Shown piece after piece: positions 218 to 63,700 of a stretch of DNA of 64,000 bases. The first letter of the stretch is position 1, and each line of letters opens with the position of its first letter. The notes beneath the pieces were generated by a model. That model was not told where the DNA came from and ran no database searches. It saw only the letters and a list, made by a program, of their open reading frames with translations. The stretch lies in NCBI GenBank assembly GCA_009692555.1, contig SHYY01000006.1:1-64000 (forward strand). Reading direction: 5' to 3'. The stretch comes from Myxococcales bacterium (GTDB lineage: Bacteria; Myxococcota_A; Polyangia; Palsa-1104; SHYY01). The translations under genes and the position numbers were made by a program.

Positions 218-2293
218 CTACTCGACGATCTTGCGGAGGCGCGCCAGCATCTCGCGGGCGAAGGCCTCCTCGTCGGCTGCGTCGCCGGGGGTCGCCACCT
301 CGAGGTCGCGCTCCTCGCACAGCGCCTTCGGGATCTCGGCGAGGAAGCGGCTCGGCGAGCGCGGGGCGCCCCGGCTGCCGCCGCGCGCAGGTCCGGCCCG
401 CTCGCGGCAGCGGGTGAGGTAGAGGCGCTCGCGGGCGCGGGTGATCCCGACGTAGAGGAGGCGGCGGTCCTCGGAGAGGTCGAGCGCGTCGGCGCCGGTG
501 GCGACCACGTCGGGGCCGTGCGGGTAGAGCGTGCGACGGTGCGGGAGCAGCTCCTCCTCGAGGCCGACCAGGAACACCACCGGGAACTCGAGGCCCTTCG
601 CGCCGTGGAGCGTCACCAGCGTCGCCTGATCGCCTGCGCCGTCGCTGTCGTCGTCGTCGCTGGTGGAGAGGGTGAGCATGTGTAGGTAGTTCACCAGACG
701 GCCGGCGCCGGAGTCCTCGCTGCGCTTCTCCCAGGCGTCGAGGGCGAGGAAGAAGCCGGAGAGGTTCTCGAGTCGTCTTTGCGCGGCGAGCGGGGAGACG
801 GCGCCGGCGCGGAGATCTTCGGGCAGCCCGGCGGCCTCGCAGAGGCCACGCGCGGCGTCGGCGAGGTTGCGCCCACCGGAGAGCGCCGCCCGGTAGCCGT
901 CGAGGAGCGTGACGAAGTTGGCGATCGCTTCGCGCGGTCGCGGGCCGATCCCATCGACCAGATCGACGTGCCGGAGCACATCCCAGAGCAGCATCTTGCG
1001 CTGCACCGCGCGCTCGCCCAGCCTTTCGAGCGTGGTGTCGCCGATCCCGCGCGCCGGGTAGTTGATGATCCGCCGGAGCGCGATCTCGTCGCGCGGGTGG
1101 AGCACCGCTTTCAGGTAGGCGATCGCGTCCTTGACCTCCTTGCGCTCGTAGAAGGCCTGCCCGCCGATCATCCGGTAGGGGATGCGCTGGGCCCGGAGCG
1201 CCTCCTCGAACTGGCGCGACTGGATGTTCGATCGGTAGAGGATTGCGCAGTCCCGGGCCTTGAAGCCGCGCCGCTCGCGCAGGAGATCGATCTCCTCGGC
1301 GACGAAGCGCGCCTCGTGATCGGGATCGGGCGCGACCACCAGCTGGAGCTTGTCGCCCGAGGGGCGCGTGGTGAAGAGGCGCTTCGGGTGGCGCCGCGGG
1401 TTGTGGGCGATGAGGGCGTTGGCGGCGTCGAGGATCATCGGCGTGGAGCGGTAGTTCTCCTCGAGGGTGATCCGGCGCGCGCCCGGGAAGTGCTTCTCGA
1501 AGTCGAGGATGTTGCCCGACTCGGCGCCGCGCCAGCCGTAGATCGACTGGTCGTCGTCGCCCACCACGCACAGGTTGTTGTGCAATGCAGCAAGGTGGCG
1601 CACCAGCATCAGCTGGGTGCGGTTGGTGTCCTGGTACTCGTCGACCATCACGTAGCGGAAGCGCTCCTGCCAGCGCGCGCGCACCGCTTCGTCGCGGTCG
1701 AGGAGGCGGACGGTCTCGATGATCAGGTCGTCGAAGTCGAGGGCGTGGAAGCCGCGCATCGCGGCCTGGTAGCGCGGGTAGAGGGAGCGGGTGATCGCGT
1801 CGTAGTCGTGTTCGCTCTCGGGCAGCTCGTCGGGGGCGAGGAAGGCGTTCTTGGCGCGGCTGATGCGAAATAGGATCGCCTTCGGATCGAAGCGGCGGTC
1901 GTCGAGCTTGACCTCGCGCAGGCACTCGCGCACCACGCCGAGCTGGTCGGCCGTGTCGTAGATGGTGAAGCCGGTCGGGAAGCCGAGGGCGGCGCGCTCG
2001 CGCTTCAGGATCATCAGGCCGAGCGCGTGGAAGGTCGAGAGGGTGAGCTTCTTCGCACCCGCCGCGCCGACCAGGACCTCGACGCGTTCGCGCATCTCGT
2101 TCGCCGCCTTGTTGGTGAACGAGACGGCGAGGATCGCCTCCTCGGGCACACCGCGCTCGAGGAGATGGGCGACGCGGTAGGTGATCACCCGCGTCTTGCC
2201 CGACCCCGCGCCGGCCAGCACGAGCAGGGGGCCGTCGACGGTGGTGACCGCCTCGCGCTGCGGTCGGTTGAGGTCGTCGAGCTGCAGCGGCAC
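218..2293 (-). CDS. UvrD/Rep/PcrA-family ATP-dependent 3'-5' DNA helicase
   Basis: Superfamily 1A helicase that unwinds DNA in repair or replication restart. The 691-aa length is close to Rep and PcrA. Visible motifs in order are Walker A AGAGSGKT (about residues 27-34), DEYQDT (near 215), VGDDDQSIYGWRGA, the ENYRST motif, LVTLHGAKGLEF and LLYVGITRARERL. The C-terminus lacks the long basic tail of some UvrD proteins, so Rep, PcrA and UvrD cannot be told apart here. The GTG start is chosen because an extended -10 (TGCTAAGGT) ends six bases upstream, predicting a leaderless mRNA. It is divergent from the metalloprotease gene. One copy of the dispersed palindrome lies inside it (codons for LAALHNN). 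Confidence 0.93.
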   Translation of the reverse strand: MPLQLDDLNRPQREAVTTVDGPLLVLAGAGSGKTRVITYRVAHLLERGVPEEAILAVSFTNKAANEMRERVEVLVGAAGAKKLTLSTFHALGLMILKRERAALGFPTGFTIYDTADQLGVVRECLREVKLDDRRFDPKAILFRISRAKNAFLAPDELPESEHDYDAITRSLYPRYQAAMRGFHALDFDDLIIETVRLLDRDEAVRARWQERFRYVMVDEYQDTNRTQLMLVRHLAALHNNLCVVGDDDQSIYGWRGAESGNILDFEKHFPGARRITLEENYRSTPMILDAANALIAHNPRRHPKRLFTTRPSGDKLQLVVAPDPDHEARFVAEEIDLLRERRGFKARDCAILYRSNIQSRQFEEALRAQRIPYRMIGGQAFYERKEVKDAIAYLKAVLHPRDEIALRRIINYPARGIGDTTLERLGERAVQRKMLLWDVLRHVDLVDGIGPRPREAIANFVTLLDGYRAALSGGRNLADAARGLCEAAGLPEDLRAGAVSPLAAQRRLENLSGFFLALDAWEKRSEDSGAGRLVNYLHMLTLSTSDDDDSDGAGDQATLVTLHGAKGLEFPVVFLVGLEEELLPHRRTLYPHGPDVVATGADALDLSEDRRLLYVGITRARERLYLTRCRERAGPARGGSRGAPRSPSRFLAEIPKALCEERDLEVATPGDAADEEAFAREMLARLRKIVE
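1578..1593. repeat. Dispersed intragenic palindrome, copy 1
   Basis: TTGTGCAATGCAGCAA inside the helicase gene. It shares the TGC-N3-GCAGCAA core with nine other strong copies in the window. On the coding strand it specifies part of LAALHNN. Confidence 0.7.
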
Positions 2294-2299
2294 GGAGGG

Positions 2300-4633: not shown

Positions 4634-4646
4634 TTTCCCCTCCCTG

Positions 4647-6326
4647 ATGCAGCGCAAGATGCAGCGGATGCTCCCGCGCGACGCGATCCTTCTCGGCCTC
4701 CTCGGGCTCTTCACCCTCCCGCTCCTGCACTGCGGTGACGACGTGATCATCCCGGATGCAGGGCCCCCCGTGGCGACCGACGCCGCGGTTGCTGCAATGC
4801 AAGATCTGGCGATCACCGATCTCGCCGCCGCACCGTCGGATCGGCGGGTCGACCTCTACAACTTCGACGGCGGCCCCTTCCTCTCCGAGTGCGCGAAGAG
4901 CGGCGACTGCAACTCGCAGCTCTGTCTCCCGACGGGGCGCTGCTCGAAGCGCTGCGCGGCGGCCGCCGAGTGTCCGCCCGGCCCGGAGTGGACCTGCGAG
5001 GCGGCGCTGGGGATCGGCGACATCTGTCTGTGCGCCCCGAGTGGCCCCGAGGTCTGCGACGGTCAGGACAACGACTGCGATGGCACCATCGACGACGGTG
5101 CGTCCTGCGATGGCGCGCGCGCCTGCCAGTCCGGGAAGTGCGTCTGCCCGCTCGACCACCTGTGCGGCAACGAGTGCGTCGACCCGCTCACCGCGAGCGC
5201 CCATTGCGGCGGCTGCGGGAAGAAGTGCGGGCCGGGGCAGGTCTGCACCGCGGGCGCGTGCGGCTGCCCGGCGAAGAACCTCTGCGGCGGGAGCTGCACC
5301 GACCTCGCCAGCGACGGAAACAACTGCGGCGGGTGCGGGATGAAGTGCCCGCAGGGCGTCCCCTGCGCGGGCGGCGCGTGCAAGTGCGCGGTGGGTCAGG
5401 CGGCGTGCGGCGGCGCTTGCATCGATGTCGCCAGCGACGGGAAGAACTGCGGCGGCTGCGGCCACTCCTGCGCGGGAGGTGCCTGCGGAGGCGGTTTCTG
5501 CCCGCTCGTGAAGCTGGCCGACGGGCTCGGCTCGCCGAACCGGATCGCCGTCGACGGCGGCAGCGTCTACTGGACCAACTACGCCGCGGGAACGGTGATG
5601 CGCACCTCGACCGGCGGCGTCAACACCAAGACGATCGCGATGGGGCAGAGCTTCCCGTTCGGCATCGCGGTCGACGCCACCTCCGTCTACTGGACCGGCA
5701 GCTTCGACGGCACGGTGCGCAAGGCCGCCCTCGACGGCGCAAACGCGATCACGCTGGTCGCCGGGCAGAGCGGGCCGCGCGCGCTCACCGTCGACGCGAG
5801 CAGCGTCTACTGGACCAGCTTCAACGACGACACCCTCCACAAGGCCGCGCTCGACGGCAAGAACGCCACCACCCTGGTGGCGATGGAGGGCGGCGCCCAG
5901 TTCCTCGCCGTCGACGGGAGCGGGATCTACTGGACCACCCCGGGCGGGAGCGTGATGCGCGCCGGATTGGACGGAACGAACGCGAAGGCGCTGGCGGTGA
6001 TGCAGACCGCGCCGACCGGGATCGCCCTCGATGGAACCCACCTCTACTGGACCGCCGGGGGCAAGGTCATGAAGCTCGCCAAGGCGGGCGGCAACGCGGT
6101 CACCCTCGCCTCGGCGCAGAACGGCCCGGGCTCGATCACCGTCGACGGCGCTGCGGTCTACTGGGTGAACCCGGGCGGGGGCACGGTGATGAAGGCCGGC
6201 CTCGACGGCGCGAACCTCACCGTGCTCGCCGCGGCGCAGGGCGGGCCGCGCGCGCTCGCCGTCGACGGTACGAGCGTCTACTGGACCAACCAGGGCAGCG
6301 GCTCGGTCATGAAGGTCGCGAAGTGA
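4647..6326 (+). CDS. Cys-rich lipoprotein with MopE-like motif and seven SVYWT propeller repeats
   Basis: 559 aa. A signal with a lipobox-like LLHC is followed by a linker, then a Cys-rich region containing EVCDGQDNDCDGTIDDG, the MopE-type putative metal-binding motif common in Myxococcota. Further Cys/Gly repeats of the form CGGSCTDLASDGNNCGGCG follow. The C-terminal half has seven repeats of about 45 aa centred on SVYWTN or variants, which suggests a beta-propeller like those of DUF5050 proteins. It probably sits on the cell surface, and the protease upstream is a plausible partner. No Shine-Dalgarno sequence stands out; ATGs at 4659 and 4668 are alternative starts. A dispersed palindrome copy encodes VAAMQ near the N-terminus. 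Confidence 0.8.
   Translation: MQRKMQRMLPRDAILLGLLGLFTLPLLHCGDDVIIPDAGPPVATDAAVAAMQDLAITDLAAAPSDRRVDLYNFDGGPFLSECAKSGDCNSQLCLPTGRCSKRCAAAAECPPGPEWTCEAALGIGDICLCAPSGPEVCDGQDNDCDGTIDDGASCDGARACQSGKCVCPLDHLCGNECVDPLTASAHCGGCGKKCGPGQVCTAGACGCPAKNLCGGSCTDLASDGNNCGGCGMKCPQGVPCAGGACKCAVGQAACGGACIDVASDGKNCGGCGHSCAGGACGGGFCPLVKLADGLGSPNRIAVDGGSVYWTNYAAGTVMRTSTGGVNTKTIAMGQSFPFGIAVDATSVYWTGSFDGTVRKAALDGANAITLVAGQSGPRALTVDASSVYWTSFNDDTLHKAALDGKNATTLVAMEGGAQFLAVDGSGIYWTTPGGSVMRAGLDGTNAKALAVMQTAPTGIALDGTHLYWTAGGKVMKLAKAGGNAVTLASAQNGPGSITVDGAAVYWVNPGGGTVMKAGLDGANLTVLAAAQGGPRALAVDGTSVYWTNQGSGSVMKVAK
4789..4802. repeat. Dispersed intragenic palindrome, copy 2
   Basis: TTGCTGCAATGCAA, in the region encoding AAVAAMQDL of the Cys-rich lipoprotein. 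Reading the opposite strand gives TTGCATTGCAGCAA, matching the consensus arm. Confidence 0.7.
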
Positions 6327-6336: not shown

Positions 6337-6921
6337 ATGAGCCGCAACCGCGACCACGTGATCGGCGCCGAGGCCCGTTACGAGGCCCTCCTGGACGAGA
6401 TCCGCGCCGAGTTCCCGCGCTTCCTGGTGATCGACAAGCGCGACTCTCTGCTGCAACGCAGCATCCAGCACGCCCTCACCGTCGTCACCCTGGGCGGTCA
6501 GCGGCGCTACCTCGAGGGCTACGTCACGACCCTGGGCGCGCGCGTCTACGTCCCCTCCACCTGGGCCGCCCGCGCCGCCGCCGACCGCTACATCACCATG
6601 CGTCACGAGCGCGTCCACCTGCGCCAGTTCCGTCGCTGGAGCTTCCCGCTGATGGCGCTTCTCTACCTCCTCCTCCCGCTCCCGTTCGGCCTCGCGTGGT
6701 GCCGCTACCGCTTCGAGCGCGCCGCCTACGAGGAGAGCCTCCGCGCCGCGGCCGAGGTCTACGGCCCCGCCGTCTTGTGCGATGCAGCATTTCGCGATGG
6801 GATCCTGGCCCAGTTCACCTCCGGCGCCTACGGCTGGATGTGGCCCTTCCCGGGCGCCCTCGCGAGGTGGTACGAGCGGACCGCGCTCGCCCTCGGCGCG
6901 CCACCGACCCTCGCGCGCTGA
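6337..6921 (+). CDS. Small membrane protein with HERVH motif, putative metallopeptidase
   Basis: 194 aa, not recognised as a named family. Residues 90-94 read HERVH, a match to HExxH, inside ITMRHERVHLRQF. A hydrophobic helix follows at about 103-121, and then a helix with AAYEESLRAA (about 129-137) offers a possible third ligand Glu. This order (HExxH, membrane helix, Glu in a helix) is what one would expect of a gluzincin-type peptidase, but the assignment is an inference from the motif only. It begins 10 bases after the propeller gene and precedes the MFS gene on the same strand. It carries two dispersed palindrome copies, one encoding LLQRS and one encoding LCDAA. Confidence 0.65.
   Translation: MSRNRDHVIGAEARYEALLDEIRAEFPRFLVIDKRDSLLQRSIQHALTVVTLGGQRRYLEGYVTTLGARVYVPSTWAARAAADRYITMRHERVHLRQFRRWSFPLMALLYLLLPLPFGLAWCRYRFERAAYEESLRAAAEVYGPAVLCDAAFRDGILAQFTSGAYGWMWPFPGALARWYERTALALGAPPTLAR
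6449..6463. repeat. Dispersed intragenic palindrome, copy 3
   Basis: TGCTGCAACGCAGCA, with perfect six-base arms TGCTGC and GCAGCA around a three-base spacer, inside the HERVH protein gene. Confidence 0.65.
6775..6789. repeat. Dispersed intragenic palindrome, copy 4
   Basis: TTGTGCGATGCAGCA, nearly identical to the copy in plsY at 14.2 kb. Both encode LCDAA. Confidence 0.7.
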
Positions 6922-9265: not shown

Positions 9266-9891
9266 TCGCGATCGTCGACGCGGGCCTCGGCAACCTGCGC
9301 TCCGTCGAGAAGGCGCTCCGCCACGTCGGGGGCGACGCGGTGGTGACAGCCGATCCGGAGGCGGTGGCGTGGGCCGAGCGGGTGGTCGTGCCGGGCCAGG
9401 GGGCGTTCGGCGACTGCGGGCGGGCGCTGGCGCGCGAGGCGCCCCTCGGCCAGGCCATTCTTGTTGCGATCGCAAAAGGGCGCCCCTACCTCGGGATCTG
9501 CCTCGGGCTGCAGATCCTGTTCGAGAGCAGCGAGGAGGCGCCGGAGTGCCGCGGGCTCGGGCTCTTTCCGGGACGCGTGGCGCGCATCCCGGGCGGGCGC
9601 GTGGACGCCGCCGGGACGCGGTTGAAGGTGCCGCACATGGGGTGGAACACCGTCGCCGCGAGCGCGCCGCACCCGCTGCTGCCCAAGGCGCCCGCGCCAT
9701 TCTACTTCGTGCATTCCTACCACGCGCTTCCGGATGCGCGCGCCGTGGTCGCAGCGACGGCGGACTACGGCGATCTGGCGATCACCGCGGCGGTGGCGCA
9801 GGACAATGTGTTCGCGGTCCAGTTCCATCCCGAGAAGAGCCAGCGGGACGGGCTGGCGCTGCTTGCGGCGTTCGTGGGGTGGCGGCCGTGA
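9262..9891 (+). CDS. hisH: Imidazole glycerol phosphate synthase, glutaminase subunit
   Basis: Class I glutamine amidotransferase that hydrolyses glutamine and channels ammonia to HisF. The 209-aa protein has the nucleophile Cys at about residue 80 (GICLGLQILFE), the conserved VPGQGAFGDC segment and the His/Glu pair in QFHPEKS. The GTG start overlaps the hisB stop (GTGA), which suggests translational coupling. The second cyclase subunit, hisF, lies two genes downstream. A near-palindromic variant of the dispersed motif (TTGTTGCGATCGCAAAA, 9461-9477) sits in the codons for LVAIAKG. Confidence 0.97.
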   Translation: MIAIVDAGLGNLRSVEKALRHVGGDAVVTADPEAVAWAERVVVPGQGAFGDCGRALAREAPLGQAILVAIAKGRPYLGICLGLQILFESSEEAPECRGLGLFPGRVARIPGGRVDAAGTRLKVPHMGWNTVAASAPHPLLPKAPAPFYFVHSYHALPDARAVVAATADYGDLAITAAVAQDNVFAVQFHPEKSQRDGLALLAAFVGWRP

Positions 9892-10657: not shown

Positions 10658-11431
10658 ATGGCCTTGCTGCGTCGCATCATTCCCTGCCTCGATGTGCGCG
10701 ACGGCCGAGTGGTGAAGGGCGTGCGCTTCGTCGATCTCCGCGACGCGGGCGATCCGGTGGAGGCCGCGGCGGCCTACGACGCGGCGGGCGCCGACGAGCT
10801 CTGCTTCCTCGACATCACCGCCTCCCACGAGGGGCGCGGCACGATCCTCGACATCGTCTCCCGCACCGCTGACCGCGTGTTCCTCCCGCTCACCGTCGGT
10901 GGAGGCGTGCGCGAGGTGGAGGATGTGCGACGGCTCCTGCTCGCCGGGGCCGACAAGGTGGCGATCAACACCGCCGCCCTCGAGCGCCCCGATCTGATCC
11001 GCGAGGCGGCCGACCGCTTCGGTGCGCAGGCGATCGTGGTGGCGATTGATGCACGCGCACAAAGAAATGGCGAGAACAAGGGAGGCTGGGAGGTCTATAC
11101 CCACGGCGGGCGGCGCCCCACCGGCCGGGACGCGGTGGCCTGGGCGGAGGCCGCCGCGGGGGCGGGCGCGGGCGAGATCCTCCTCACCTCGATGGACCGC
11201 GACGGCACCCGGCAGGGCTACGACCTCGCCCTCACCCGCGCGGTGGCCGACGCGGTGCCGGTGCCGGTGATCGCCTCCGGCGGTGTCGGGACGCTCGAGC
11301 ACCTCGCCGAGGGGTTTCTCCAAGGGCACGCCGACGCGGTGCTGGCCGCCTCGATCTTCCATTTCGGCGAGCACTCCCTGGCCGAGGCGAAGCGCTTCCT
11401 GGCCGGACGCGGCGTGGCGGTGCGCCAGTGA
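10658..11431 (+). CDS. hisF: Imidazole glycerol phosphate synthase, cyclase subunit
   Basis: Uses ammonia from HisH to convert PRFAR to imidazole glycerol phosphate and AICAR. The 257-aa barrel has the catalytic Asp in [16 protein letters not shown], plus [12 protein letters not shown] and the second Asp in [13 protein letters not shown], and [10 protein letters not shown] for phosphate. The start codon follows the hisA stop directly, and its own stop overlaps the hisIE GTG (GTGA). The close packing suggests that HisH, HisA and HisF are made in step. Confidence 0.97.
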
Positions 11432-14058: not shown

Positions 14059-14655
14059 GTGGTCCTCCTCGTCGTCGGCGCGCTCCTCGGCGCCTTCCTC
14101 CTCGGGTCGATCCCCTTCGGGGTGGTGTTCGCCCGCGCCCGCGGCGTCGATCTCCGCAAGGTCGGCTCGGGGAACATCGGCGCCACCAACGCCGCCCGCG
14201 CCCTCGGCAAGCACCTCGGCGTGATCGTCCTTTTGTGCGATGCAGCAAAGGGCTGGCTGCCGGTGCTGCTGGCCCGCCACTACCTCGAAGCGCGCGTGGT
14301 CCACGGCGAGTTTCTCGTCGCCGGCGTCGGCGTGGCGGCCTTCCTCGGACACCTCGCGCCGCCGTGGCTGGGCTTCCGCGGCGGCAAGGGGGTGGCCACC
14401 GGCCTCGGAGTGTTTCTCGCGCTCTCGGTGTGGCCGGCGCTGATCGCCGTCGCATGCTTCGTGGCGGTGTACGCGATGGCCCGTGTCTCGTCGCTCGGCT
14501 CGCTGGTCGCAGCGACGGCAGTTCTCCCGGCGCTTTTCCTGTTCGACGCCCCGACCGCCTACCTCGCGGCGGCGGGCACGATGTGGGTGCTGATCGTCTG
14601 GAAGCACCGCAGCAATATCGAGCGGCTGCTCAAGCACGCCGAGAACAAGGTGTAG
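14059..14655 (+). CDS. plsY: Acyl-phosphate:glycerol-3-phosphate acyltransferase
   Basis: Inner-membrane enzyme that transfers an acyl chain from acyl-phosphate to glycerol-3-phosphate, the first committed step of phospholipid synthesis. The 198-aa protein has several membrane helices and the three conserved cytoplasmic motifs: LLGSIPFGVV and SGNIGATNAAR, GFRGGKGVAT, and WKHRSNIERL. The GTG at 14059 is six bases after a -10 hexamer. The gene ends three bases from the convergent DUF4178 gene. It carries a dispersed palindrome copy encoding LLCDAAKG. Confidence 0.96.
   Translation: MVLLVVGALLGAFLLGSIPFGVVFARARGVDLRKVGSGNIGATNAARALGKHLGVIVLLCDAAKGWLPVLLARHYLEARVVHGEFLVAGVGVAAFLGHLAPPWLGFRGGKGVATGLGVFLALSVWPALIAVACFVAVYAMARVSSLGSLVAATAVLPALFLFDAPTAYLAAAGTMWVLIVWKHRSNIERLLKHAENKV
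14233..14250. repeat. Dispersed intragenic palindrome, copy 5
   Basis: TTGTGCGATGCAGCAAAG inside plsY, encoding LCDAAK. TTG, TGC and AAA-type codons here contrast with the G/C-ending codons around it. Confidence 0.75.
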
Positions 14656-17789: not shown

Positions 17790-19118
17790 ATGGCATTCGA
17801 GTTCAGGCTCCCCGATCTAGGCGAGGGCGTCGTCGAGGGGGAGGTCGTCCGCTGGCTGGTCAAGGTGGGCGACGCGGTGCGCGAGGACCAGCCGATGGTC
17901 GAGGTGATGACCGACAAGGCGACGGTGGAGATCCCGTCGCCCAAGGCGGGACGGGTGCTCAGGATCGATGCGCCCGAGGGGAAGATGTGCGCGGTGGGGA
18001 AGGTGATGATCGCGATCGAGATCAACGGCGGAGCGTCGAGGCCCGTCGCTGCGGTCGGAACGCCGATCGCGGAGGTGCTGCGCGAGGTGACCCAGCGGAT
18101 CGCCGCCCCCGGGCCGCCGCGCGGGCTTCCCGTGGAGTTGCCGACGGTGACCGGGAAATACATCGCCACGCCGGCGACCCGTCAGCTGGCGCGCGATCTC
18201 GGGGTCGACCTCGGGCGCGTGCGCGGGTCGGGCGACAACGGCCGGATCACGTCCGACGACGTGCGCGCGGCGGGTGGACGGCCGGCGATCGCGAAGCCCC
18301 ACGGCTCCCGCCGAGACAACTCCGCTGACGCGGTAAAGGAAGTTAGCGTTTCCGTTCCCGTTCCCGTTTCCGTTCCCGTTTCCGTTTCCGTTCCCGTTTC
18401 CGTCGCTCCGGTCGAGGGGGACGAGCGGATCCCCTTCCGCGGCGTGCGCAAGAAGATCGCCGAGAACATGGCGCGCTCGACCCGCACCGCGGCCCACTTC
18501 ACCTACGTCGAAGAGGCCGATCTCACCGACCTCGTGGCCCTCCGCGCGCGCGCGAAGAAGCGCGCCGAGGAGCGCGGCGTCAAGCTGTCGTTCCTCCCGT
18601 TCATCGTCAAGGCGGTGGTCGCGGGGCTGAAGAAGTACCCGATCGTGAACTCCACCCTCGACGAGGAGCGCGGCGAGATCGTGCTCCGCAAGCGCTACAA
18701 CATCGGCGTGGCGGCCGCCTCCGACGCCGGGCTGATCGTCCCGGTGATCAAGGACGCCGACAAGAAGTCGCTGTTCGATATCGCCCGCGAGCTCGCCGAT
18801 CTCTCCGAGCGCGCCCGCACCGGCAAGGCCTCCCGCGACGAGCTGACCGGCTCCACCTTCACCATCTCGTCGCTCGGCAGCCTCGGCGGCGTACTCGCCA
18901 CGCCGATCATCAATCACCCGGAGGTGGCGATCTTGGGCGTCCACAAGATCAAGCCGGCGGCGGTGGTGCGCGAGGGACAGATCGTCATCCGCGAGATGAG
19001 CAACTTCTCGATCTCGCTCGATCACCGCGTGGTCGACGGCTACGAGGGCGCGCTGTTCCTCCAGCACGTGATCGACCTGCTCTCCGATCCGACGCTGATG
19101 TTCCTGGAGCTGGTTTGA
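17790..19118 (+). CDS. Dihydrolipoamide acyltransferase, E2 component
   Basis: 442 aa with the standard order of E2 domains. A lipoyl domain occupies residues 1-80 with the lipoylated Lys near 43 (VMTDKATVEIP). A peripheral-subunit-binding domain follows at about 129-160 (ATPATRQLARDLGVDLGRV). A linker made almost only of Val, Ser and Pro comes next (about 187-204), and then a catalytic acyltransferase domain with DHRVVDG (His near 412). The linker is written by a hexanucleotide microsatellite. There is one lipoyl domain, as in branched-chain E2. The stop overlaps the TTG of the second E1alpha. Confidence 0.95.
   Translation: MAFEFRLPDLGEGVVEGEVVRWLVKVGDAVREDQPMVEVMTDKATVEIPSPKAGRVLRIDAPEGKMCAVGKVMIAIEINGGASRPVAAVGTPIAEVLREVTQRIAAPGPPRGLPVELPTVTGKYIATPATRQLARDLGVDLGRVRGSGDNGRITSDDVRAAGGRPAIAKPHGSRRDNSADAVKEVSVSVPVPVSVPVSVSVPVSVAPVEGDERIPFRGVRKKIAENMARSTRTAAHFTYVEEADLTDLVALRARAKKRAEERGVKLSFLPFIVKAVVAGLKKYPIVNSTLDEERGEIVLRKRYNIGVAAASDAGLIVPVIKDADKKSLFDIARELADLSERARTGKASRDELTGSTFTISSLGSLGGVLATPIINHPEVAILGVHKIKPAAVVREGQIVIREMSNFSISLDHRVVDGYEGALFLQHVIDLLSDPTLMFLELV
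18348..18401. repeat. In-frame hexanucleotide repeat encoding the E2 linker
   Basis: Nine consecutive units of GTTTCC or GTTCCC translate as VSVPVPVSVPVSVSVPVS. A six-base unit keeps the frame whatever the copy number, so length change would only lengthen or shorten the flexible linker between the binding domain and the catalytic domain. Confidence 0.95.
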
Positions 19119-20826: not shown

Positions 20827-21213
20827 CTACCAGATCCGCGTGAGGCCGTAGTCGTCGAAGACGGTGTCGAGGGTGACGATGGGGACCGCCTCGGCGTGCG
20901 ATTGCGCGATCAGCATGCGATCAAAGGGATCGCGATGCGGCCCCGGCAGGGCCCCGGCGCGCTGGGCGTGCTCGACGGAGATCGGGAGGCTCGTGAAGCC
21001 CTGGCTCACGATGCACGCGGCCACGTCGGCGGCCACGGCGAGCGCTCCCGGAAGCTTCCCGATGCGCGCCTTGGTCGTGATCTCCCAGGCCGTCGCCGCG
21101 CTGACGAGCACGACCGTCGCGGGATCTTCGATGCGCCGTCGCACCCTCGGAGGCAGGCGCCGATCGCCGTCGAGCCACCAGAGGAATGCGTGGGTGTCGA
21201 GCAGCAGCTTCAC
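20827..21213 (-). CDS. PIN-domain toxin (VapC-like ribonuclease)
   Basis: 128 aa. The PIN acidic residues are visible: Asp6 in LLLDTHAFLWW, Glu in AWEITTK, Asp in RDPFDRMLIAQ and Asp in VTLDTVFDDY. Such proteins cleave RNA and are held in check by a partner. It overlaps the antitoxin gene by four bases (ATGA), so the two are translated as a pair. DTHAFLWW at the N-terminus marks the subgroup usually paired with Phd/YefM antitoxins instead of AbrB-type VapB. Confidence 0.9.
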   Translation of the reverse strand: MKLLLDTHAFLWWLDGDRRLPPRVRRRIEDPATVVLVSAATAWEITTKARIGKLPGALAVAADVAACIVSQGFTSLPISVEHAQRAGALPGPHRDPFDRMLIAQSHAEAVPIVTLDTVFDDYGLTRIW

Positions 21214-21455
21214 CGATCGCCGTCCCAGGCGTCCAGCTCCTCGCGTGGGAGGGATTCGAAGAACGATTCAGTGACCCGGGCCCGCCCCTTCATGGCGCCG
21301 AACTTGCGCTGCGGGGCGGGGGTGGTCACCGGGACGAGGCGGACCACCGGCTGCTTCCCGCGGGCGATCACGATCTCCTCACCGTCGAGGGCGCGCTGGA
21401 TGAGGCGGGAGAGGTGGGTCTTGGCCGCGTGGACGCTGATGGGCTTTTCACGCAT
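21210..21455 (-). CDS. Phd/YefM-family antitoxin
   Basis: 81 aa. The N-terminal dimerising and DNA-binding part reads ISVHAAKTHLSRLIQRALDGEEIVIARGKQPVVRLVPV, characteristic of Phd/YefM proteins. The acidic and aromatic C-terminus (TESFFESLPREELDAWDGD) is the part expected to wrap around the PIN toxin. It is the first gene of the pair. A perfect inverted repeat begins one base upstream of the start codon, which fits autorepression by the toxin-antitoxin complex. Confidence 0.9.
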   Translation of the reverse strand: MREKPISVHAAKTHLSRLIQRALDGEEIVIARGKQPVVRLVPVTTPAPQRKFGAMKGRARVTESFFESLPREELDAWDGDR

Positions 21456-26932: not shown

Positions 26933-29116
26933 TCAATCGAAGATCACCCCCAGCAGGCTCGACCGGTCGTCGCTCCAGTCCACCACTTTTCCACCGTCTT
27001 CGAGCGCCTTCCAATCCGCATGCTCCAGGGCCTCGATCGCCGCCCGGTCGCGCGAGACCGCCACCACCACGCTCGGCGTGGCGCGCTCCTTCTTCAGCTG
27101 CTCGTCCGGCTGGAAGCGCCGGATCGCCGCGCGCACACCGAGCGTCCTGGCGCCCCCGCGCAAGACCCGCGAGAGGTCCATGTAGCGATTGCTGATGTGC
27201 ACGAGCAGCACCCCGTGCGGCGTCAGCTTGTCGAGGTACAGGCGGAGCGCGTCGACGGTCAGGAGGTGCACCGGGATGGCATCGCTCGAGAAGGCGTCCA
27301 TCACCAGGAGGTCGAAGCTCTGATCGGGGACCCGGGCGAGGGTCAGGCGCGCATCGCCGAGCACCGTCTCCACCTCGCCCTTCGCGTCGGCGAGGAAGGT
27401 GAACCACCCGCGCGCCATCGGCTCGACCGCGGGATCGATCTCGAAGTAGGTCACGCGCTGCCCGGGACGGGTGAGCGCGGCGATCGATCCGGCGCCGAGG
27501 CCCACCACGCCGATCCGCGCGCCGTCTTTCTGTGCCAGCACCGCCGCGCTCATCGGCGCCTTCGGGTGGTAGTAGGCCACCGGCTTGCGCTCCAGCGGAT
27601 CGATGATCTGGATCCCGTGCAGCGTCGTGCCGTGGACCATCATCCGGCGGTCACCGTCGTCGGAGACACGCAGCACGCCGAAGAAGCTCCGCCGCGCCTC
27701 GAGCAGCCGCGAGTCGGTGGCGAAGCCGAGCACCACGAAGCCCGCCACCGTCGCGCAGGCGAGCGGAAACTGACCGGGCAGCTGCCACAGCGCCATCCCG
27801 ATCAGCAGCACCACCAGCGGGATCACGAACCAGTGATCGTGGTACTCGGGCCGCCCGTAGCGAAGCTGCAGCACCGAGAGCGCCAGCGCTGCCGCCATCG
27901 CCGCCGGGCCGAGCCAGGTGATCGGTTTTTGCAATGCAGCAAAGAGCGCGACGCCGCGATCGCGCAGCGCGAAGGCGAAGGCGAGCAGCGCGAGGGTGAT
28001 CGGGTACTCGGCGACGCTCTTGAAGAGGAGCGGCGCGACGATGTTTCCGAACAGCCCGCCGAGGAAGCCACCGACGGAGATCCACAGGTAGAACTCGGTC
28101 AGCTGCGCCGGCGGGGGGCGGTCGCGGGCGAGGTCGCCGTGGCAGATCCAGCAGCCGAGGAAGAGCGATCCGAGCGGCGGCGTGACCTCCAGCCACAGCA
28201 CCGCCCCGTGCCCCCACGGCAGCGGCGTCAGCGCGAGGGTGACGAAGAACATCGCGAAGATCTCCAGGCGGTCGCGCGGGTAGGGCGCGCGCGGGAGGAA
28301 GGCGATGATGAAGCTCGCGAGGTAGATCCCGAGCGGGACGGTCCACAAGAGCGGCACCGCGGCGAGGTCGGTCGAGATGCGCAACGACACCGCCAGGAGC
28401 AGGCCCGACGCCACCGCCGCCCGGAACACCCAGCGCCCCCGCTGCGGCCAGCCGATCGCCGGCAGCGGCACCGCCACCGACGCGCCGGCGCTCTCCTGTG
28501 ACCCCGGAAGGCCGGACGGTCCCCCCGACGCACGCCGAGCCGCGAACATGCTGGCGAAGGTGAGGGCAACGAAGAGGAGGTAGCCGGCGGCCCACAAGGT
28601 CGCCTGCGCGCGGAGGCCGATCCGCGGCTCGATCAGGAGCGGATAGGCGCCGAGCGCGCACAGCGAGGCCGCGTTCGAGGCCGCGTAGAGGAAGTAGGGA
28701 TCGTCCGGTGAGCGCAGCGTGAACCAGCGCTGCACCAGGCTGCTGTTGGTCGAGAGCACGAAGAAGGGCAGCCCCACCGACGCCAGCAGGGCCACCAGCA
28801 GCGCAGGCACCGGCCACGCTCCCGGCGTCGGCGCGAAGCGGGCCGCGATCACCGGCGGGAGCATCACCAGCGGGAGCAGCAGCAGGAGCCCGTGGACCAG
28901 CATGTGGCGCCGCGTGCCGAGCAGCCGATCGCCGAAATGGCTGTAGGCGTATCCCGCCAGCAGGAGCGTCTGGAAGAACAGCAGGCAGGTGTTCCACACT
29001 GCCGGCCCGCCGCCGAACCACGGCAGCGCCATCTTGGCGATCATCGGCTGGACGAGGAAGAGCAGGAAGGCGCTGGTCGCGATGCTGCCGACGAACGCCG
29101 GAGAGCCCGATCGCAT
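26933..29116 (-). CDS. Membrane-spermidine synthase-like fusion protein
   Basis: 727 aa. The N-terminal two-thirds carries many hydrophobic helices (LFLVQPMIAKMALPWFGGG onward), as in the fused MFS/spermidine-synthase family. The C-terminal third is an SpeE-like Rossmann domain: IGVVGLGAGSIAAL for S-adenosyl binding, VTYFEIDPAVE, VLGDARLTLA and LLVMDAFSSDAIPVHLLT. The catalytic Asp is therefore present, but the substrates are unknown for this family and need not be putrescine. TAGAAT ends six bases before the ATG. One dispersed palindrome copy encodes FAALQKP. Confidence 0.88.
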   Translation of the reverse strand: MRSGSPAFVGSIATSAFLLFLVQPMIAKMALPWFGGGPAVWNTCLLFFQTLLLAGYAYSHFGDRLLGTRRHMLVHGLLLLLPLVMLPPVIAARFAPTPGAWPVPALLVALLASVGLPFFVLSTNSSLVQRWFTLRSPDDPYFLYAASNAASLCALGAYPLLIEPRIGLRAQATLWAAGYLLFVALTFASMFAARRASGGPSGLPGSQESAGASVAVPLPAIGWPQRGRWVFRAAVASGLLLAVSLRISTDLAAVPLLWTVPLGIYLASFIIAFLPRAPYPRDRLEIFAMFFVTLALTPLPWGHGAVLWLEVTPPLGSLFLGCWICHGDLARDRPPPAQLTEFYLWISVGGFLGGLFGNIVAPLLFKSVAEYPITLALLAFAFALRDRGVALFAALQKPITWLGPAAMAAALALSVLQLRYGRPEYHDHWFVIPLVVLLIGMALWQLPGQFPLACATVAGFVVLGFATDSRLLEARRSFFGVLRVSDDGDRRMMVHGTTLHGIQIIDPLERKPVAYYHPKAPMSAAVLAQKDGARIGVVGLGAGSIAALTRPGQRVTYFEIDPAVEPMARGWFTFLADAKGEVETVLGDARLTLARVPDQSFDLLVMDAFSSDAIPVHLLTVDALRLYLDKLTPHGVLLVHISNRYMDLSRVLRGGARTLGVRAAIRRFQPDEQLKKERATPSVVVAVSRDRAAIEALEHADWKALEDGGKVVDWSDDRSSLLGVIFD
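27926..27944. repeat. Dispersed intragenic palindrome, copy 6
   Basis: TTTTTGCAATGCAGCAAAG in the membrane part of the spermidine-synthase-like gene. Codons read FAALQK. Confidence 0.75.
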
Positions 29117-30662: not shown

Positions 30663-32251
30663 TGGCCGAGCCGGACCGTCCGGCCGGGCCGCGCGCGCGT
30701 CGGCCGCCCATCCGCCACCACCAGCGCCCCGTTGACAATCACATGCTGGATCCCGATCGGGTAGCGGACCGGATCCTCGAACGTCGCGGTGTCCGCCACC
30801 GTCGCCGGATCGAACACCACCAGGTCGGCGATCAGCCCCTCATCGATCGCTCCGCGATCCGGCAGGTGCATCGCCGCCGCGGCCAGCGAGGTCACCTTGC
30901 GGATCATCTGGGGCAGCGAGAGAACCTGCTGCTCGCGCACGTAGCGTCCCAGAAGTCGCGGGAAGGTCCCGTAGGCGCGTGGATGCGGCCGCCCACCCAG
31001 AAGCCCGTCGCTGCACCCGTTCACCCACGGCAGCGTCATCAGGCGCGCGACCACCTCCTCGGACTGCGAGAAGCTGATCATCGCCACCGCCATCCGCTCG
31101 CTCGCGAGGAGGTCGAGCGCGAACTCGAGCGGGTCCGGAGCGCCCGCCGCCGCCGCCGCCGCCGCCACGGTCTTCCCGAGCAGCTCCGGGCGCCTCCCCG
31201 ACGGGACATCGGCGATCACGATCCCCCCCGGCCCGGTCCACGACCAGAAATTGTCCCACGCGCCCGGCCCGTCATGCTGCATCGCAGCACGGAGCTTCGC
31301 CCGCTCCTCCGGGGAGGCGAGCCGGGCCAGCGTCTCCTCCGTTCCGCCGGCGTGCGCCCACGGCGGAAGGATCGCTCCGAACAGCGTCGACCCCGCCGCA
31401 TAGGGGTACTGATCGGCCGTCACCCGCAGCCGGTCCTCGCGCGCCGTCTCCACGCGCGCTACCACCTGCTCGACGAGCGGCCAGTTTCGCCGTCCGGCGA
31501 TCGTGAGGTGCGAGAGGTGCAGATGAACCCCCGTCTCGCGCGCCACGCCGATCATCTCATCGAGCGCCTCGAGGATGCGGTCCGACTCCCACCGGAGGTG
31601 CACCGCGAACACCCCGCCCTTGCGCGCCACCTCGCGGCCCAGCGCCACCAGCTCCTCGGTTGCTGCATAGCAGCAAGGCGGGTAGCCGAGCCCGGTCGAC
31701 ATCCCGAGCGCCCCATCCGCCATGCCGCTCCCGAGCAGGGCGACCATCAGGTGCAGCTCGTCCTCGGTCGGCGCGCGGTCCAGATCGCCCATCACATAGG
31801 TGCGGATCGCCCCGTGCGGCACGAGGTACGCGCTGTTCACCGCCGCACCGCTGCGATCGATCGTCCCGAGGTAGTCCGCCACCGAGCGCCAGTCGCGCAC
31901 CAGGAACGGATCCCCGAGCAGCCCGGCCAGCTTCCGCCGCGTGCGCTCCACGTCCGCCGCGCGCACCGGCGCCACCGAGAGCCCGTCCTGCCCCAGCACC
32001 TCCAGCGTCACCCCCTGCCGCACCTTCATCGGCAGGTCCGGGTCGGCCAGGATCTGGAGGTCCGAGCGGGAGTGGGTGTCGATGAAGCCGGGGCAGACGA
32101 CCATCCCCCCGCACTCCACCAGGTCGCCGCCCTGCGTCATATCCGGCCCCACCGACACGATCCGGTCGCGGTAGGTGATGATATCGGCTGCGTACGCCGG
32201 GGCGCCCGTACCGTCGATGACCAGGCAGTTACGGAGGTGAAGACGCTGCAT
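30659..32251 (-). CDS. N-acyl-D-amino-acid deacylase (D-aminoacylase) family protein
   Basis: 530 aa amidohydrolase. PGFIDTHSRSDLQIL stands where related enzymes have an HxH metal pair; the second His is Arg here. GVTLEVLGQDGLSVAP replaces the Cys-containing GNCG loop of the classical D-aminoacylase, as in the QDGLS subgroup. Later motifs are HLRWESDRILEAL, HLHLSHLTIAG, ADQYPYAAGSTLF and CSDGLLGGRPHPRAYGTFPR. The ATG at 32251 is preferred over the ORF-track start. It heads an operon with XdhC-like and MocA-like genes. It contains two dispersed palindromes 370 bases apart. Confidence 0.88.
   Translation of the reverse strand: MQRLHLRNCLVIDGTGAPAYAADIITYRDRIVSVGPDMTQGGDLVECGGMVVCPGFIDTHSRSDLQILADPDLPMKVRQGVTLEVLGQDGLSVAPVRAADVERTRRKLAGLLGDPFLVRDWRSVADYLGTIDRSGAAVNSAYLVPHGAIRTYVMGDLDRAPTEDELHLMVALLGSGMADGALGMSTGLGYPPCCYAATEELVALGREVARKGGVFAVHLRWESDRILEALDEMIGVARETGVHLHLSHLTIAGRRNWPLVEQVVARVETAREDRLRVTADQYPYAAGSTLFGAILPPWAHAGGTEETLARLASPEERAKLRAAMQHDGPGAWDNFWSWTGPGGIVIADVPSGRRPELLGKTVAAAAAAAGAPDPLEFALDLLASERMAVAMISFSQSEEVVARLMTLPWVNGCSDGLLGGRPHPRAYGTFPRLLGRYVREQQVLSLPQMIRKVTSLAAAAMHLPDRGAIDEGLIADLVVFDPATVADTATFEDPVRYPIGIQHVIVNGALVVADGRPTRARPGRTVRLGQ
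31274..31289. repeat. Dispersed intragenic palindrome, copy 7
   Basis: ATGCTGCATCGCAGCA, with perfect TGCTGC/GCAGCA arms. On the coding strand it gives AAMQH. Confidence 0.75.
31660..31676. repeat. Dispersed intragenic palindrome, copy 8
   Basis: TTGCTGCATAGCAGCAA: perfect seven-base arms with a three-base spacer, the most symmetric copy. The coding strand gives CCYAAT. Confidence 0.8.
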
Positions 32252-32367
32252 GGTGAGCGGTGCGAAGCCTACCACGCGCTGCGAGCATTTTAATATGCTT
32301 GCCTTTCCCCGAGATCGTGTATCGTGCGCCTCGCAGGGTAGGACATAGGCCCACAAGGAGATTTGAA

Positions 32368-36947: not shown

Positions 36948-37744
36948 TGGCCGCCGCCGGGGGCGAACTGGTGCTGGTCGAGCGTCCCGCCGAGGGTGTC
37001 GCCCGGGTGGTGATGAACCGGCCCGAGCGGCGCAACGCCCTCGACCTCGCCCTGGCCCGCGCGCTCCGCGAGGCGCTCGAGGACGCCAGCGCCGACGACA
37101 CGGTTCGCGCCGTGATTCTCGCCGGCGCCGGCCCGACCTTCAGCGCGGGCGGCGACGTGAAGATGATGGCCGAGGCGGGCTCGGCCGGCCGCGAGCCCCT
37201 CCTCCTCGACGTGACCCGCCACTTCCACGCCGCGGTCGCCGAGATTGCTGCAATGCAAAAACCGGTGATCGCCGCGGTGCAGGGCGGCGCGGGCGGCGGC
37301 GGCCTGTCCCTGATGTGCGCCTGCGACCTGGTGATCGTCGACGAAAAGGCCAAGCTGGTGTTCGCCTTCAACGCCCTCGGCCTGACCCCCGACGGCGGCT
37401 CATCCCACCACCTGCCGCAGATGATCGGCTGGCGCCGCGCGACCGAGATGGCGTTCCTCAACGAGCCACTCGACGGCCGGCGCGCCGTCGACCTCGGCCT
37501 CGCGACCCGCGCGGTGCCCACCGACCAGGTCGCCGAGGAGGCCCTCGCGCTCGCCACCCGCCTCGCCGCCGGCCCCACCGCCGTGTTCGGCAAGACCAAA
37601 GAGCTGCTCCGCGCCATGCGCCCGCTCGCCGAGACGCTGGCGATCGAGAGCACGACCATCGCCGCTGCCAGCGCCGAGGTCGATGGCGGCGAGGGGATCG
37701 ACGCCTTCATCGAGAAGCGCGCTCCCCGCTTCCGGGGACGCTGA
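36947..37744 (+). CDS. Enoyl-CoA hydratase/isomerase family protein
   Basis: 265-aa crotonase fold. Oxyanion-hole segments are FSAGGDVKMM and VQGGAGGGGLSLMCACDLVI. In place of the hydratase Glu pair the sequence gives LGLTPDGGSSHHLPQ, with Asp as in PaaG-like isomerases, so it may isomerise rather than hydrate. GTG start overlaps the GNAT stop by one base. One dispersed palindrome copy encodes IAAMQKPVIA at a position that is conserved as a K-P-V/T-I-A motif in the family, showing that the DNA motif has been fitted into an essential region. Confidence 0.9.
   Translation: MAAAGGELVLVERPAEGVARVVMNRPERRNALDLALARALREALEDASADDTVRAVILAGAGPTFSAGGDVKMMAEAGSAGREPLLLDVTRHFHAAVAEIAAMQKPVIAAVQGGAGGGGLSLMCACDLVIVDEKAKLVFAFNALGLTPDGGSSHHLPQMIGWRRATEMAFLNEPLDGRRAVDLGLATRAVPTDQVAEEALALATRLAAGPTAVFGKTKELLRAMRPLAETLAIESTTIAAASAEVDGGEGIDAFIEKRAPRFRGR
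37244..37261. repeat. Dispersed intragenic palindrome, copy 9
   Basis: ATTGCTGCAATGCAAAAA in the crotonase-family gene. The codons ATT GCT GCA ATG CAA AAA are all rare in the surrounding GC-rich genes. Confidence 0.75.
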
Positions 37745-60164: not shown

Positions 60165-60169
60165 GCACG

Positions 60170-60772: not shown

Positions 60773-63700
60773 CTACCTGCGAAACTGGCGGATGCCGCGC
60801 CTTGCGTCGTCGGCGTAGGCGCCGCGAGGCTCGAGCCGCAGGTAGGCCTCGAAGGAGTCGGCGGCGGCCTGGTCCCCGGCCTGGGAGCGGAGGCGGCCGA
60901 GCTCGTAGTGGGCGTCGGCGAAGGAGGGATCGGCAGCGACCGCCTCCTCCATGAGCTTGCGGGCGACATCGCGCGCCTTCCGCTCCTCGTGGAGGATCGC
61001 CATCTGGTAGCAGGCGCGGGCGTTGCGGCGGTCGAGCTTCAGCGCCGCGTCGAGGTAGCGCGCGGCGTTCTTCGCCGAGCCCTGGTCGTAGTGGGCGCGG
61101 CCGAGGACGGCGTAGGCCTCGGCGCGTACCATCGCCGGGACGCGCGCGCGCTCGCCACGCTTGAGTGCGCCGAGCGCGAGTGACTCGGCGGCCGACGAGC
61201 GCCCCGCCTCGGCGAGGCCGCGCGCCTCGGCCACCAGGACCTCCGGGGTGCCCTGGAGCCGCGGCGGGATGGCGCGGGCGACGTAGTTTGGCGGCAGGGG
61301 TCGCCCGCTATGCTGCAATGCAGTAAGATAGAGCCCCGCCGTCTCGGCGCGCTGCGCGGTGGTGACCAGATCGCGCAGCACCGCCGCCGCGTCGTCGGCG
61401 CGGCCCGATCGCAGCAGCGCCAGCGCCCGCAGATCGGCCACCTCTTCCCCCGCGGCGCCCACCTTTTCGGCACGCGTGAGACGCTCCTCGGCGCCGATCA
61501 GATCGCCCAGCAGCGCCCGGGCGCGCGCTGCACCGAGGAGCGCGGCGCTGTCCATCGGCACCTTCTCCGCCAGGGCGTCGTACTCCTCGCGCGCCACCTG
61601 GAGGTCGCCCGACTCGAGCGAGAGCGCCGCCAGCTCGCGCCACGCCGGCATGAACTCGGCGTTTGCCTGCACCGCGCGCTTGAGCTCCGAGCGCGCCTCC
61701 TCGACCCGGTTGTCGTCGAGGAACAGGCGCGCCAGCTGGACCCGCGCATCGAGCGCGAGCGGATTTCGCTCGACCGCCTTTGCGAACCAGAAGCGTGCGC
61801 GATCGGGTTGCCGCTGGGCGGCGAGGGCCTCGGCGAGCCCCTCGGCCACCATCGCCGGGGCGAGCCGCGATCGCTCCATCCGTTCCAGCTCGTGCTGCGC
61901 CTGCGCGGACCGCCCCTCGGCGATGTCGACCCGCGCGCGCGCCACCCGCGCCTCGACCAGATCGGGCGCCAGGCGGATCGCCTCGTCGAGATCGGCCCCC
62001 GCCCGTGCGGTGTCGCCGAGCGCGAAGTGGGCCCGCCCGCGCACCAGCAGCGCCTCCGGCCGCGTTGCGCCCGCCTCCTCCACGTCGCTCAGCGCCTCCT
62101 TGGCGCGCCCGCGCAGGAGCGCCACCTGGGCCAGCACGAGGTAGCCGGCGCTGCGCCCGCGCGGGCTCTCGATCGCCCGGCGTGCCTCGGTCTCGGCCGC
62201 GTCGAGCTCGAACGCCTTCAGGTAGGCGACGGCCAGCCCGGCCACCAACGCGGGGTCGCCGGTTGCGCCCGGGTCCTTGGGACGCTTCGCCGAGGCCCGC
62301 ACCAGCAGCCCGCGGCCGCCTTCCAGATCCCCGCGGGCGAGGTGCAGCTCGCCCAGTGCGAGGTAGGCGCGGCCGAGCTCCGACGGGGAGGCCTCTGCCG
62401 CCAGCTTCGAGACCACGCCTTCGAGAAACGACTCTGCCGCGCCGAGGTCGCGGCCGCGCTGGATCTGGAGCGACGCGCGGTCGATGATCGTGGCGACGTG
62501 ATTCGGCGACAGGGCGAGGGCGCGCGCGAAGGCTTCCATCGCGGCGGCGTCGTGGCGCCGGCCCGCTTCGGCGAGGCCGAGCCCGTGGAGGAGCAGCGGG
62601 TCGTGGGGATCGCGCTCGACGGCGGAGGAGATCGCCCGCGCGGCTTCGTCGGGGTGATCCTGGAGCAGCTCCACCCGTCCGACGAGGTAGCGCGGGATCG
62701 CTCCGCCGTAGGCGGACTGGAGCTGGGCAGCCAGACGGCGTGCGCGTGGGAGGTCGCCGCGGGCCAGCGCGACCAGGGTGCGCGCGACCTGGGCGTCCTC
62801 GGAGGCATCGTCGCCGAGGGCCGAGAGCGCGTACCCGGCCGACTCGATCGGCTCGCCGAACTCGAAGGACATCGTCGCGAGAGCCCTCGCCCGCGAGGCC
62901 CGCACCGCGTCGTCCGACGGGTGATCGAGCAGGATCCGCCGGTACTCGTCGGCGGCCGCCTGGTAGCCGGCGAAGGTGCCCGAGGCGATCCGTCGCTGCG
63001 CCGATTCGCGGTGCCGATCGACGCGCGCGCCGACGCGGTACTCGCGGAGCGCGAAGGCGGTCACTCCGGCGACCACGCTCACCGCGGCGGCGCTCGCGAC
63101 CACCAGCAACACCACGCGCCGCGACACGCTCGACAGCGGACTGCGGGTGATCGCCGTGTGCACCTCACGCATCCCGCGGCGGCGGGGACGAGGCGCGGCG
63201 GGTACGGGCCTGCTCCGCGCGGGGACGGAGACCGACATGGCCGTCGCATGCGGATCGCGGGGCACCGGAATCGTGGTGGCGGTGGCGAGCGGATCGCGGG
63301 GCACGGGAGAGGTCGTTGCGGCCGAGGGATCGCGCTTGTGCGGTGTGGTCGGCACCGACGGTGGATCTTGCGACAGCTGGGGGAGTGGCCGGGAGCCGCG
63401 GCGCGCGGCGGGTCCGTCGCGCGACACCACGCGAAGCGGCGCTGGCGCCTGCTGCCGCCGCGGGGGCGCCGCGGGCCATTCATTCTCCGGCTCGGCCGGC
63501 TCTTGATCGGGCCGCTCCGAAGGGGGAGCGCGGGGCACCGGCGTCTCCTCGAGCGCGGAGCGTCGCGACGGTTGGCGCTGTCCCTCCTCGCCGGAGCCGG
63601 AGCGCCACGCCGTGGGCCTCGGGGACGGCGACTCGTCTGCGGCAGGCGGGGAGCGCCCGGGCAACGGCCGCGGCGACACCTCGAGCGACCGCCTCGCCAT

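What the first reader, a model, noticed from the sequence alone, without database searches (positions are those of the whole stretch)
1578..61326. A dispersed 15-18 bp imperfect palindrome recurs inside genes
Ten strong copies of a TGCTGC-N3-GCAGCA-like element (consensus near TTGYTGCRATGCAGCAAA) occur at 1578, 4789, 6449, 6775, 14233, 27926, 31274, 31660, 37244 and 61309. All lie inside coding sequence of unrelated genes on both strands and in different frames, and use AT-rich codons (GCA, TTG, AAA, TTT) rare in this genome. They yield peptides such as AAMQ, AALQ and LCDAA; the shadow ORFs repeat CCIA or QCSK. A near variant is at 9461. Repetition of so long a motif in GC-rich DNA is not chance. 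Candidates: a protein-binding site for chromosome organisation, a methyltransferase or uptake signal, or a palindrome under HIP1-like selection.
Basis: seen in the sequence. Interest (0 to 1): 0.72.

Follow-up and report, generated by a model that had tools for sequence, protein, structure and literature searches.

The report
PhaR-type binding sites scattered inside genes
A 15-letter DNA palindrome that normally marks where the carbon-storage regulator PhaR binds has multiplied into roughly 200 copies, mostly inside protein-coding genes, in one genus of Myxococcota bacteria, and evolution preserves the DNA letters themselves, which suggests that a storage regulator has been turned into a chromosome-wide system.

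Summary
All ten sites are present, plus an eleventh at 10665; the 9461 "variant" fails. The de novo motif is W-TGCTGC-RNY-GCAGCA-W. Exact copies of TGCTGCN3GCAGCA number 69 in the genome against 0 for the reversed pattern, and only one other searched genome, a member of the same genus, shows this (63). Intragenic sites exceed a protein-preserving codon shuffle 93 to 6.5. The genome holds about 170-240 strong sites, 89% inside genes, as chance placement would give. In the sister species 12 of 18 comparable sites keep all twelve bases while flanking sequence drifts (control 9%); in the next genus none of ten are kept. The motif matches the PhaR operator (CTGCN3GCAG). It occurs as a tandem pair before a short PhaR paralogue in both genus members and the next genus. 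It also lies before 55 of 78 related PhaR genes in other Myxococcota and Acidobacteriota, against 0 of 20 genes of a sister paralogue clade. Another lineage carries dense islands, one spanning its PHA synthase locus. I conclude that these are PhaR-family binding sites under DNA-level selection, probably architectural or roadblock sites; which role is unproven, and binding is inferred, not measured.

The parts
1578..1592 (.). site TTGTGCAATGCAGCA, inside the UvrD-like helicase gene (218-2293, - strand)
   Evidence: 24.0 bits; conserved in the sister species with one change; gene by Pfam
4790..4804 (.). site TGCTGCAATGCAAGA, inside a predicted surface/lipoprotein gene (4647-6326)
   Evidence: 20.5 bits; no alignable sister sequence found
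6449..6463 (.). site TGCTGCAACGCAGCA, inside gene 6337-6921
   Evidence: 24.2 bits; all 12 specified bases conserved in the sister species, lost in the next genus
6775..6789 (.). site TTGTGCGATGCAGCA, inside gene 6337-6921, 326 bp from its partner site
   Evidence: 20.3 bits; all 12 bases conserved in the sister species
   Evidence: 21.9 bits; HisF by Pfam
14233..14247 (.). site TTGTGCGATGCAGCA, inside plsY-like glycerol-3-phosphate acyltransferase gene (14059-14655)
   Evidence: 24.5 bits; sister keeps the whole core with diverged flanks; next genus codes the same peptide LCDAAK with other codons
27927..27941 (.). site TTTTGCAATGCAGCA, inside gene 26933-29116 (- strand)
   Evidence: 25.9 bits
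31275..31289 (.). site TGCTGCATCGCAGCA, inside amidohydrolase gene (30659-32275, - strand)
   Evidence: 23.7 bits; all 12 bases conserved in the sister species
31661..31675 (.). site TGCTGCATAGCAGCA, same gene, 386 bp from its partner
   Evidence: 21.9 bits; all 12 bases conserved in the sister species
37246..37260 (.). site TGCTGCAATGCAAAA, inside enoyl-CoA hydratase gene (36947-37744)
   Evidence: 25.5 bits; all 12 bases conserved in the sister species
61311..61325 (.). site TGCTGCAATGCAGTA, inside TPR-protein gene (- strand)
   Evidence: 25.3 bits; TPR by Pfam

Best explanation
The element is the binding site (operator) of a PhaR-family protein with the PHB_acc_N DNA-binding domain (PF07879). 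The most likely binder is the short 152-residue paralogue P0001 at G000:C34, which carries the same site twice in its own promoter. In this genus the site has multiplied to roughly 200 copies, about nine in ten of them inside genes, and is held by selection on the DNA itself. Shown here: motif, enrichment, genus restriction, conservation beyond protein need, and the tie between the motif and PhaR genes. Inferred: that PhaR binds the intragenic copies. Proposed mechanism: dimers bind each palindrome and co-operate between sites in pairs and clusters, bridging DNA. The sites therefore act as chromosome-wide architectural or roadblock sites that link the carbon-storage state to the nucleoid and to growth operons, rather than as ordinary promoter operators. 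Within that mechanism I rate nucleoid architecture or tethering (about 0.4) slightly above transcriptional roadblock and looping (about 0.35).
For: Published PhaR-type sites are CTGCN3GCAG (R. sphaeroides), TGNTGCN3GCAA (PhbF) and NYGCRNYGCRN with AT-rich arms (S. meliloti) (PMC12542648, PMC3206438). The motif found de novo has the same core, RNY centre and AT arms. Two sites 20 bp apart sit 29 and 49 bp before the short PhaR gene; the pair recurs in the sister species and in the next genus. A matrix learned on the dispersed sites finds sites at -250..+30 of 55/78 KYGNRRLY-type PhaR genes, 3.9/kb against 0.07/kb farther away, and 0/20 in the KRYANRKLYD paralogue clade. Conservation: 12/18 sites keep all 12 bases in the sister against 8.7-9.3% of control windows, p about 2e-9. 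Protein sequence and codon usage alone do not explain them: 93 against 6.5. Some G000-only sites coincide with protein changes, such as QWNP to QLNP. Placement ignores genes: 88.7% inside, 88.8% expected, no promoter excess. Pairs are close: 15 of 78 gaps are under 400 bp, about 2 expected from density. Another lineage has an island of about 24 kb across its phaC-phaR locus.
Against: No binding data were found for any Myxococcota PhaR. The genome's own PHA synthase locus (C91) carries no site, so a simple PHA operator role is not supported here. P0001 lacks the PHB_acc domain, so granule contact is unproven. The next genus has the same protein and promoter pair but no expansion, so the protein alone does not explain the spread. 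Conservation rests on 18 sites, some in the same gene, and on one sister species.
Confidence: 0.72

Rival explanations
1. The sites are ordinary regulatory operators of a large PhaR regulon. Intragenic copies are auxiliary operators or roadblocks (as with the lac operator inside lacZ) that repress biosynthetic operons such as the dcw cell-wall cluster, his, aro and surface-polysaccharide genes when carbon is stored.
For: Nine sites lie in the 16.6-kb contig with the dcw cluster, one 39 bp before a gene and eight inside mur/ftsW genes. Intergenic sites mostly sit 8-150 bp before a start codon. Close pairs, and shared fate of the pairs at 6456/6782 and 31282/31668, suit looping. In G144 about 28% of sites are intergenic.
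Against: In G000 there is no excess near promoters and no bias to the 5' part of genes. Site-bearing genes share no single pathway.
Confidence: 0.33
2. A different DNA-binding protein, unrelated to PhaR but with a similar palindrome, binds the sites.
For: TGC-N3-GCA palindromes are simple, and no direct binding was measured.
Against: Tandem sites before the short PhaR gene are kept across two genera; 55/78 against 0/20 PhaR-clade specificity; published PhaR consensus.
Confidence: 0.1
3. A HIP1-like, methyltransferase, uptake or recombination signal that is maintained without a regulator.
For: Dispersed, intragenic and lineage-specific, like HIP1 (PMC4390886, abstract only).
Against: The motif has a variable 3-base centre and the layout of a dimeric-protein operator, and it sits in PhaR promoters in another phylum.
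Confidence: 0.06
4. An artefact of codon bias, amino-acid repeats (AAxQ) or low complexity.
For: Frame bias 53/25/16 towards Ala-Ala-x-Gln readings.
Against: Codon-shuffled genes with the same proteins give 6.5 sites against 93; the reversed pattern gives 0 against 69; conserved sites occur in all three frames.
Confidence: 0.01

Closest known systems
PhaR / PhbF / AniA operator (CTGCN3GCAG; TGNTGCN3GCAA)
   Same: Same TGC-N3-GCA core, RNY centre and AT-rich arms; lies before PhaR-family genes, often as two sites, consistent with autoregulation
   Different: Known sites are in promoters (50 promoter regions in S. meliloti, PMC12542648); here about 200 sites, about 89% inside genes, with no promoter excess, and none at this genome's own PHA synthase locus
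Noc (about 70 sites) and SlmA (24-52 sites) nucleoid-occlusion systems; MatP/matS (from memory)
   Same: Dispersed palindromes bound by a dedicated dimeric protein
   Different: Candidate protein belongs to an unrelated family; depletion near the terminus could not be tested; more sites; occurs in clusters
HIP1 (GCGATCGC) of cyanobacteria
   Same: Lineage-specific, highly repeated palindrome
   Different: HIP1 is associated with orphan methyltransferases (PMC4390886, abstract); this one has a candidate regulator, is longer and far less frequent
PhaM nucleoid tether of Ralstonia eutropha
   Same: Storage-granule protein that links PHB granules to DNA; its authors suggest that PhaR may also do so (PMC3556143)
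   Different: No dispersed sequence-specific sites were seen in the passages read; granule contact is untested here

Membership tests
PhaR-type operator | TGC-N3-GCA palindromic core | tested here: met
   T 0.98, G 0.99, C 0.98 on each side of a 3-base RNY centre
PhaR-type operator | AT-rich arms outside the core | tested here: met
   T 0.91 at -7 and T/A 0.75 at -8 in 70% GC DNA
PhaR-type operator | present before PhaR-family genes (autoregulation) | tested here: met
   tandem pair in G000, G001, G002; 55/78 related loci; 0/20 in the sister paralogue clade
PhaR-type operator | present at phasin/PHA synthesis genes | tested here: inconclusive
   none on C91, which carries phaC-phaR-phaC of G000; abundant at the phaC-phaR locus of G144
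PhaR-type operator | bound by PhaR in vitro | not testable with these tools
   needs EMSA, footprint or ChIP
PhaR regulator family (P0001) | PHB_acc_N DNA-binding domain PF07879 | tested here: met
   1.4e-21, 76.7 bits, cut-off 25
PhaR regulator family (P0001) | PHB_acc domain PF05233 | tested here: not met
   absent in P0001; weak, below cut-off, in P0003. P0001 is therefore called a PhaR-family (PHB_acc_N) protein, not a full PhaR
Noc/SlmA-like nucleoid occlusion sites | dispersed palindromes | tested here: met
Noc/SlmA-like nucleoid occlusion sites | depletion around the replication terminus | not testable with these tools
   genome is 283 unordered contigs
Noc/SlmA-like nucleoid occlusion sites | bound by a ParB- or TetR-family protein | tested here: not met
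   candidate is PHB_acc_N
HIP1 | GCGATCGC octamer | tested here: not met
   motif is TGCTGC-RNY-GCAGCA; of the listed places only the rejected 9461 variant resembles it (TTGCGATCGCAA)

The most novel reading that the evidence does not exclude
In some Myxococcota a PhaR-family protein has become a sequence-specific nucleoid-architecture or granule-tethering factor. About 200 mostly intragenic sites spread over the chromosome (this genus), or dense islands including one around the PHA locus (G144), form its scaffold, and selection for the sites has altered coding sequences.
Probability: 0.35. Interest if true: 0.82.

Novelty: new variant of a known kind. Interest (0 to 1): 0.64.

Why it matters
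Dispersed intragenic palindromes such as HIP1 lack an agreed function and binder. Here a repeated palindrome is tied by several independent lines to a named DNA-binding family, and two sister genomes show DNA-level selection within protein-coding sequence. That makes a direct test possible: does a carbon-storage regulator organise the chromosome or throttle growth genes? It also offers a way to read how a transcription factor's sites multiply in one lineage.

Tried and rejected
k-mer over-representation (8-10-mers) missed the motif because it is too long and gapped. Spacers other than 3 in TGCTGC-Nx-GCAGCA show no comparable excess. Promoter-operator placement in G000 was tested and not supported. 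Helical phasing of close pairs is weak (Rayleigh p 0.006-0.03, with different phases in different groups) and is not relied on. Fold search of the modelled PhaR domain found no solved relative (best E 2.2), and sequence search found none either, so the DNA-binding mode could not be modelled. One Pfam batch failed on a malformed entry.

Full report
Observation. Against a matrix refined on 1.22 Mb of the same genome they score 20-26 bits. One more site lies at 10665-10679 in hisF, and the 9461 variant (TTGCGATCGCAA) fails. All eleven lie inside called genes: a UvrD helicase, hisF, a plsY-like acyltransferase, an amidohydrolase, an enoyl-CoA hydratase, a TPR protein and others.

Is it more than chance? 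The whole genome (6.1 Mb, 283 contigs, 80% complete; the window is contig C12) holds 69 exact TGCTGCN3GCAGCA and none of the reversed control. Of 96 genomes searched, among them members of the same genus, family, order and class, only the sister species in the same genus (63) shares this; the same-family genome has 4. With the relaxed pattern TGNTGCRNYGCANCA the counts are 133 and 82 for the two genus members, 7 for the same-family genome and 3-16 for the others tested. De novo refinement gives W-TGCTGC-RNY-GCAGCA-W. In 1.22 Mb there are 85 sites above 18 bits against 0.7 in order-5 Markov sequence. With proteins held fixed and synonymous codons shuffled, genes carry 6.5 such sites (above 15 bits) on average; the real genes carry 93. 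The matrix was trained on these data, but the exact-pattern counts and the tests in other genomes are independent of that. Contigs taken without regard to sites suggest about 170 strong sites in the genome; scaling from exact copies gives about 244. Sites cluster: variance-to-mean ratio 1.5 in 5-kb bins, in a sample partly chosen for sites. The window is a rich region.

Placement. 88.7% of sites lie wholly inside genes, where 88.8% is expected, and there is no excess close upstream of starts. Frames are 53/25/16, favouring the reading Ala-Ala-x-Gln, the cheapest in this Ala-rich proteome (my inference). The codons used are rare (GCA 5.1 and TTG 3.7 per 1000). Close pairs are frequent: 15 of 78 gaps are under 400 bp, where overall density predicts about two.

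Selection on DNA. Eighteen sites could be aligned to the sister species (average DNA identity 75%). In 12 all twelve specified bases are identical and in 14 at most one differs, against 8.7-9.3% of control windows with all twelve identical (p about 2e-9; sites in one gene are not fully independent). At 14233-14247 the core is intact while flanks are scrambled; the next genus codes the same peptide LCDAAK with different codons. The four lost sites differ at 5-7 of the twelve positions, and some coincide with amino-acid differences in G000, such as QWNP to QLNP. Sites in one gene share their fate: 6456/6782 and 31282/31668 both kept, 36295/36555 of contig C113 both lost. None of ten alignable sites is kept in the next genus, so the expansion is most simply a gain within this genus.

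The protein. The published binding site of PhaR, the polyhydroxyalkanoate (PHA) regulator, is CTGCN3GCAG in R. sphaeroides; PhbF uses TGNTGCN3GCAA; S. meliloti shows NYGCRNYGCRN with AT arms. This genome has three PF07879 proteins. One, P0001 (152 residues, PHB_acc_N plus a C-terminal predicted helix, with the sister orthologue modelled), has two motif copies 20 bp apart, 29 and 49 bp before its start codon. The pair recurs in the sister species and the next genus. Across 78 further loci encoding KYGNRRLY-type PhaR proteins in Myxococcota and Acidobacteriota, 55 have a site between -250 and +30 of the gene, 3.9 sites per kb against 0.07 per kb more than 2 kb away. Twenty loci of the KRYANRKLYD clade, a separate branch of the same domain family, have none. 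This negative control argues that the motif belongs to the KYGNRRLY clade. That PhaR binds the intragenic copies is inferred.

Another lineage. In G144 (JAEUKH01, 'Myxococcales bacterium new MAG-90') sites form islands. One of about 24 kb has some 27 sites across phaC and phaR genes; other islands lie on contigs C2, C47 and C25; 12 other contigs sampled (about 215 kb) have none. In G000, by contrast, the contig carrying phaC-phaR-phaC (C91) has none, while the contig with the dcw cell-wall cluster (C53) has nine.

Interpretation. Best supported: a PhaR-family protein's operator has multiplied inside genes and is kept by selection on DNA. The lack of promoter bias and the spread over unrelated genes favour an architectural or tethering role, as for Noc and SlmA sites (about 70 and 24-52 sites, PMC4726725). 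Pairs, clusters and the dcw case leave room for looping or roadblock control. A PHB-nucleoid link has precedent in PhaM of Ralstonia, whose authors suggest that PhaR may contribute (PMC3556143). P0001 lacks the PHB_acc domain, so granule contact is not shown.

Limits. No binding data; one sister genome; unordered contigs, so no origin-terminus plot; about a quarter of the genome read in full, partly chosen for sites. The genus is unnamed here. The sister genome matches JAJXSP01 (Myxococcales bacterium BP4.bin10). The class appears to contain Nannocystis: a 'same class' PhaR hit falls at the coordinates of the Nannocystis poenicansa record.

Noticed in passing
L278 (G000 contig C53) 3714-15452: Nine sites in the contig carrying the dcw cluster (mraW, ftsI, murE, murF, mraY, murD, ftsW, murG, murC; some names by eye); murE, murF and murD carry two each.
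   Followed up: partly
L238-L242 (G144 contigs C8, C2, C47, C25): Dense islands of the same motif, one spanning phaC-phaR, with no sites in about 215 kb of other contigs of that genome.
   Followed up: partly
L165-L236 (Acidobacteriota and Myxococcota phaR promoters): Pairs of sites near phaR genes recur at set spacings, notably 65-69 bp and 83-85 bp, which suggests a conserved multi-dimer operator.
   Followed up: partly
L054-L073: A second, widespread PF07879 clade (KRYANRKLYD) never has the motif upstream in 20 loci; its target site is unknown.
   Followed up: partly
L174 (CANJUR010000108) and L189 (JAQBQI010000184): Two further Myxococcota lineages show many motif copies within a few kb of phaR.
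   Followed up: no
window 20827-21455: Adjacent small genes resembling a PIN-domain toxin and a Phd-like antitoxin, judged by eye from the protein sequence only.
   Followed up: no
window 18347-18403: Short stretch in a dehydrogenase E2-like gene that matches dozens of places in the sister genome.
   Followed up: no
PF07879 domain (P0001, L158 protein): No solved structure relative was found by sequence or by fold, so this DNA-binding domain appears structurally uncharacterised.
   Followed up: yes
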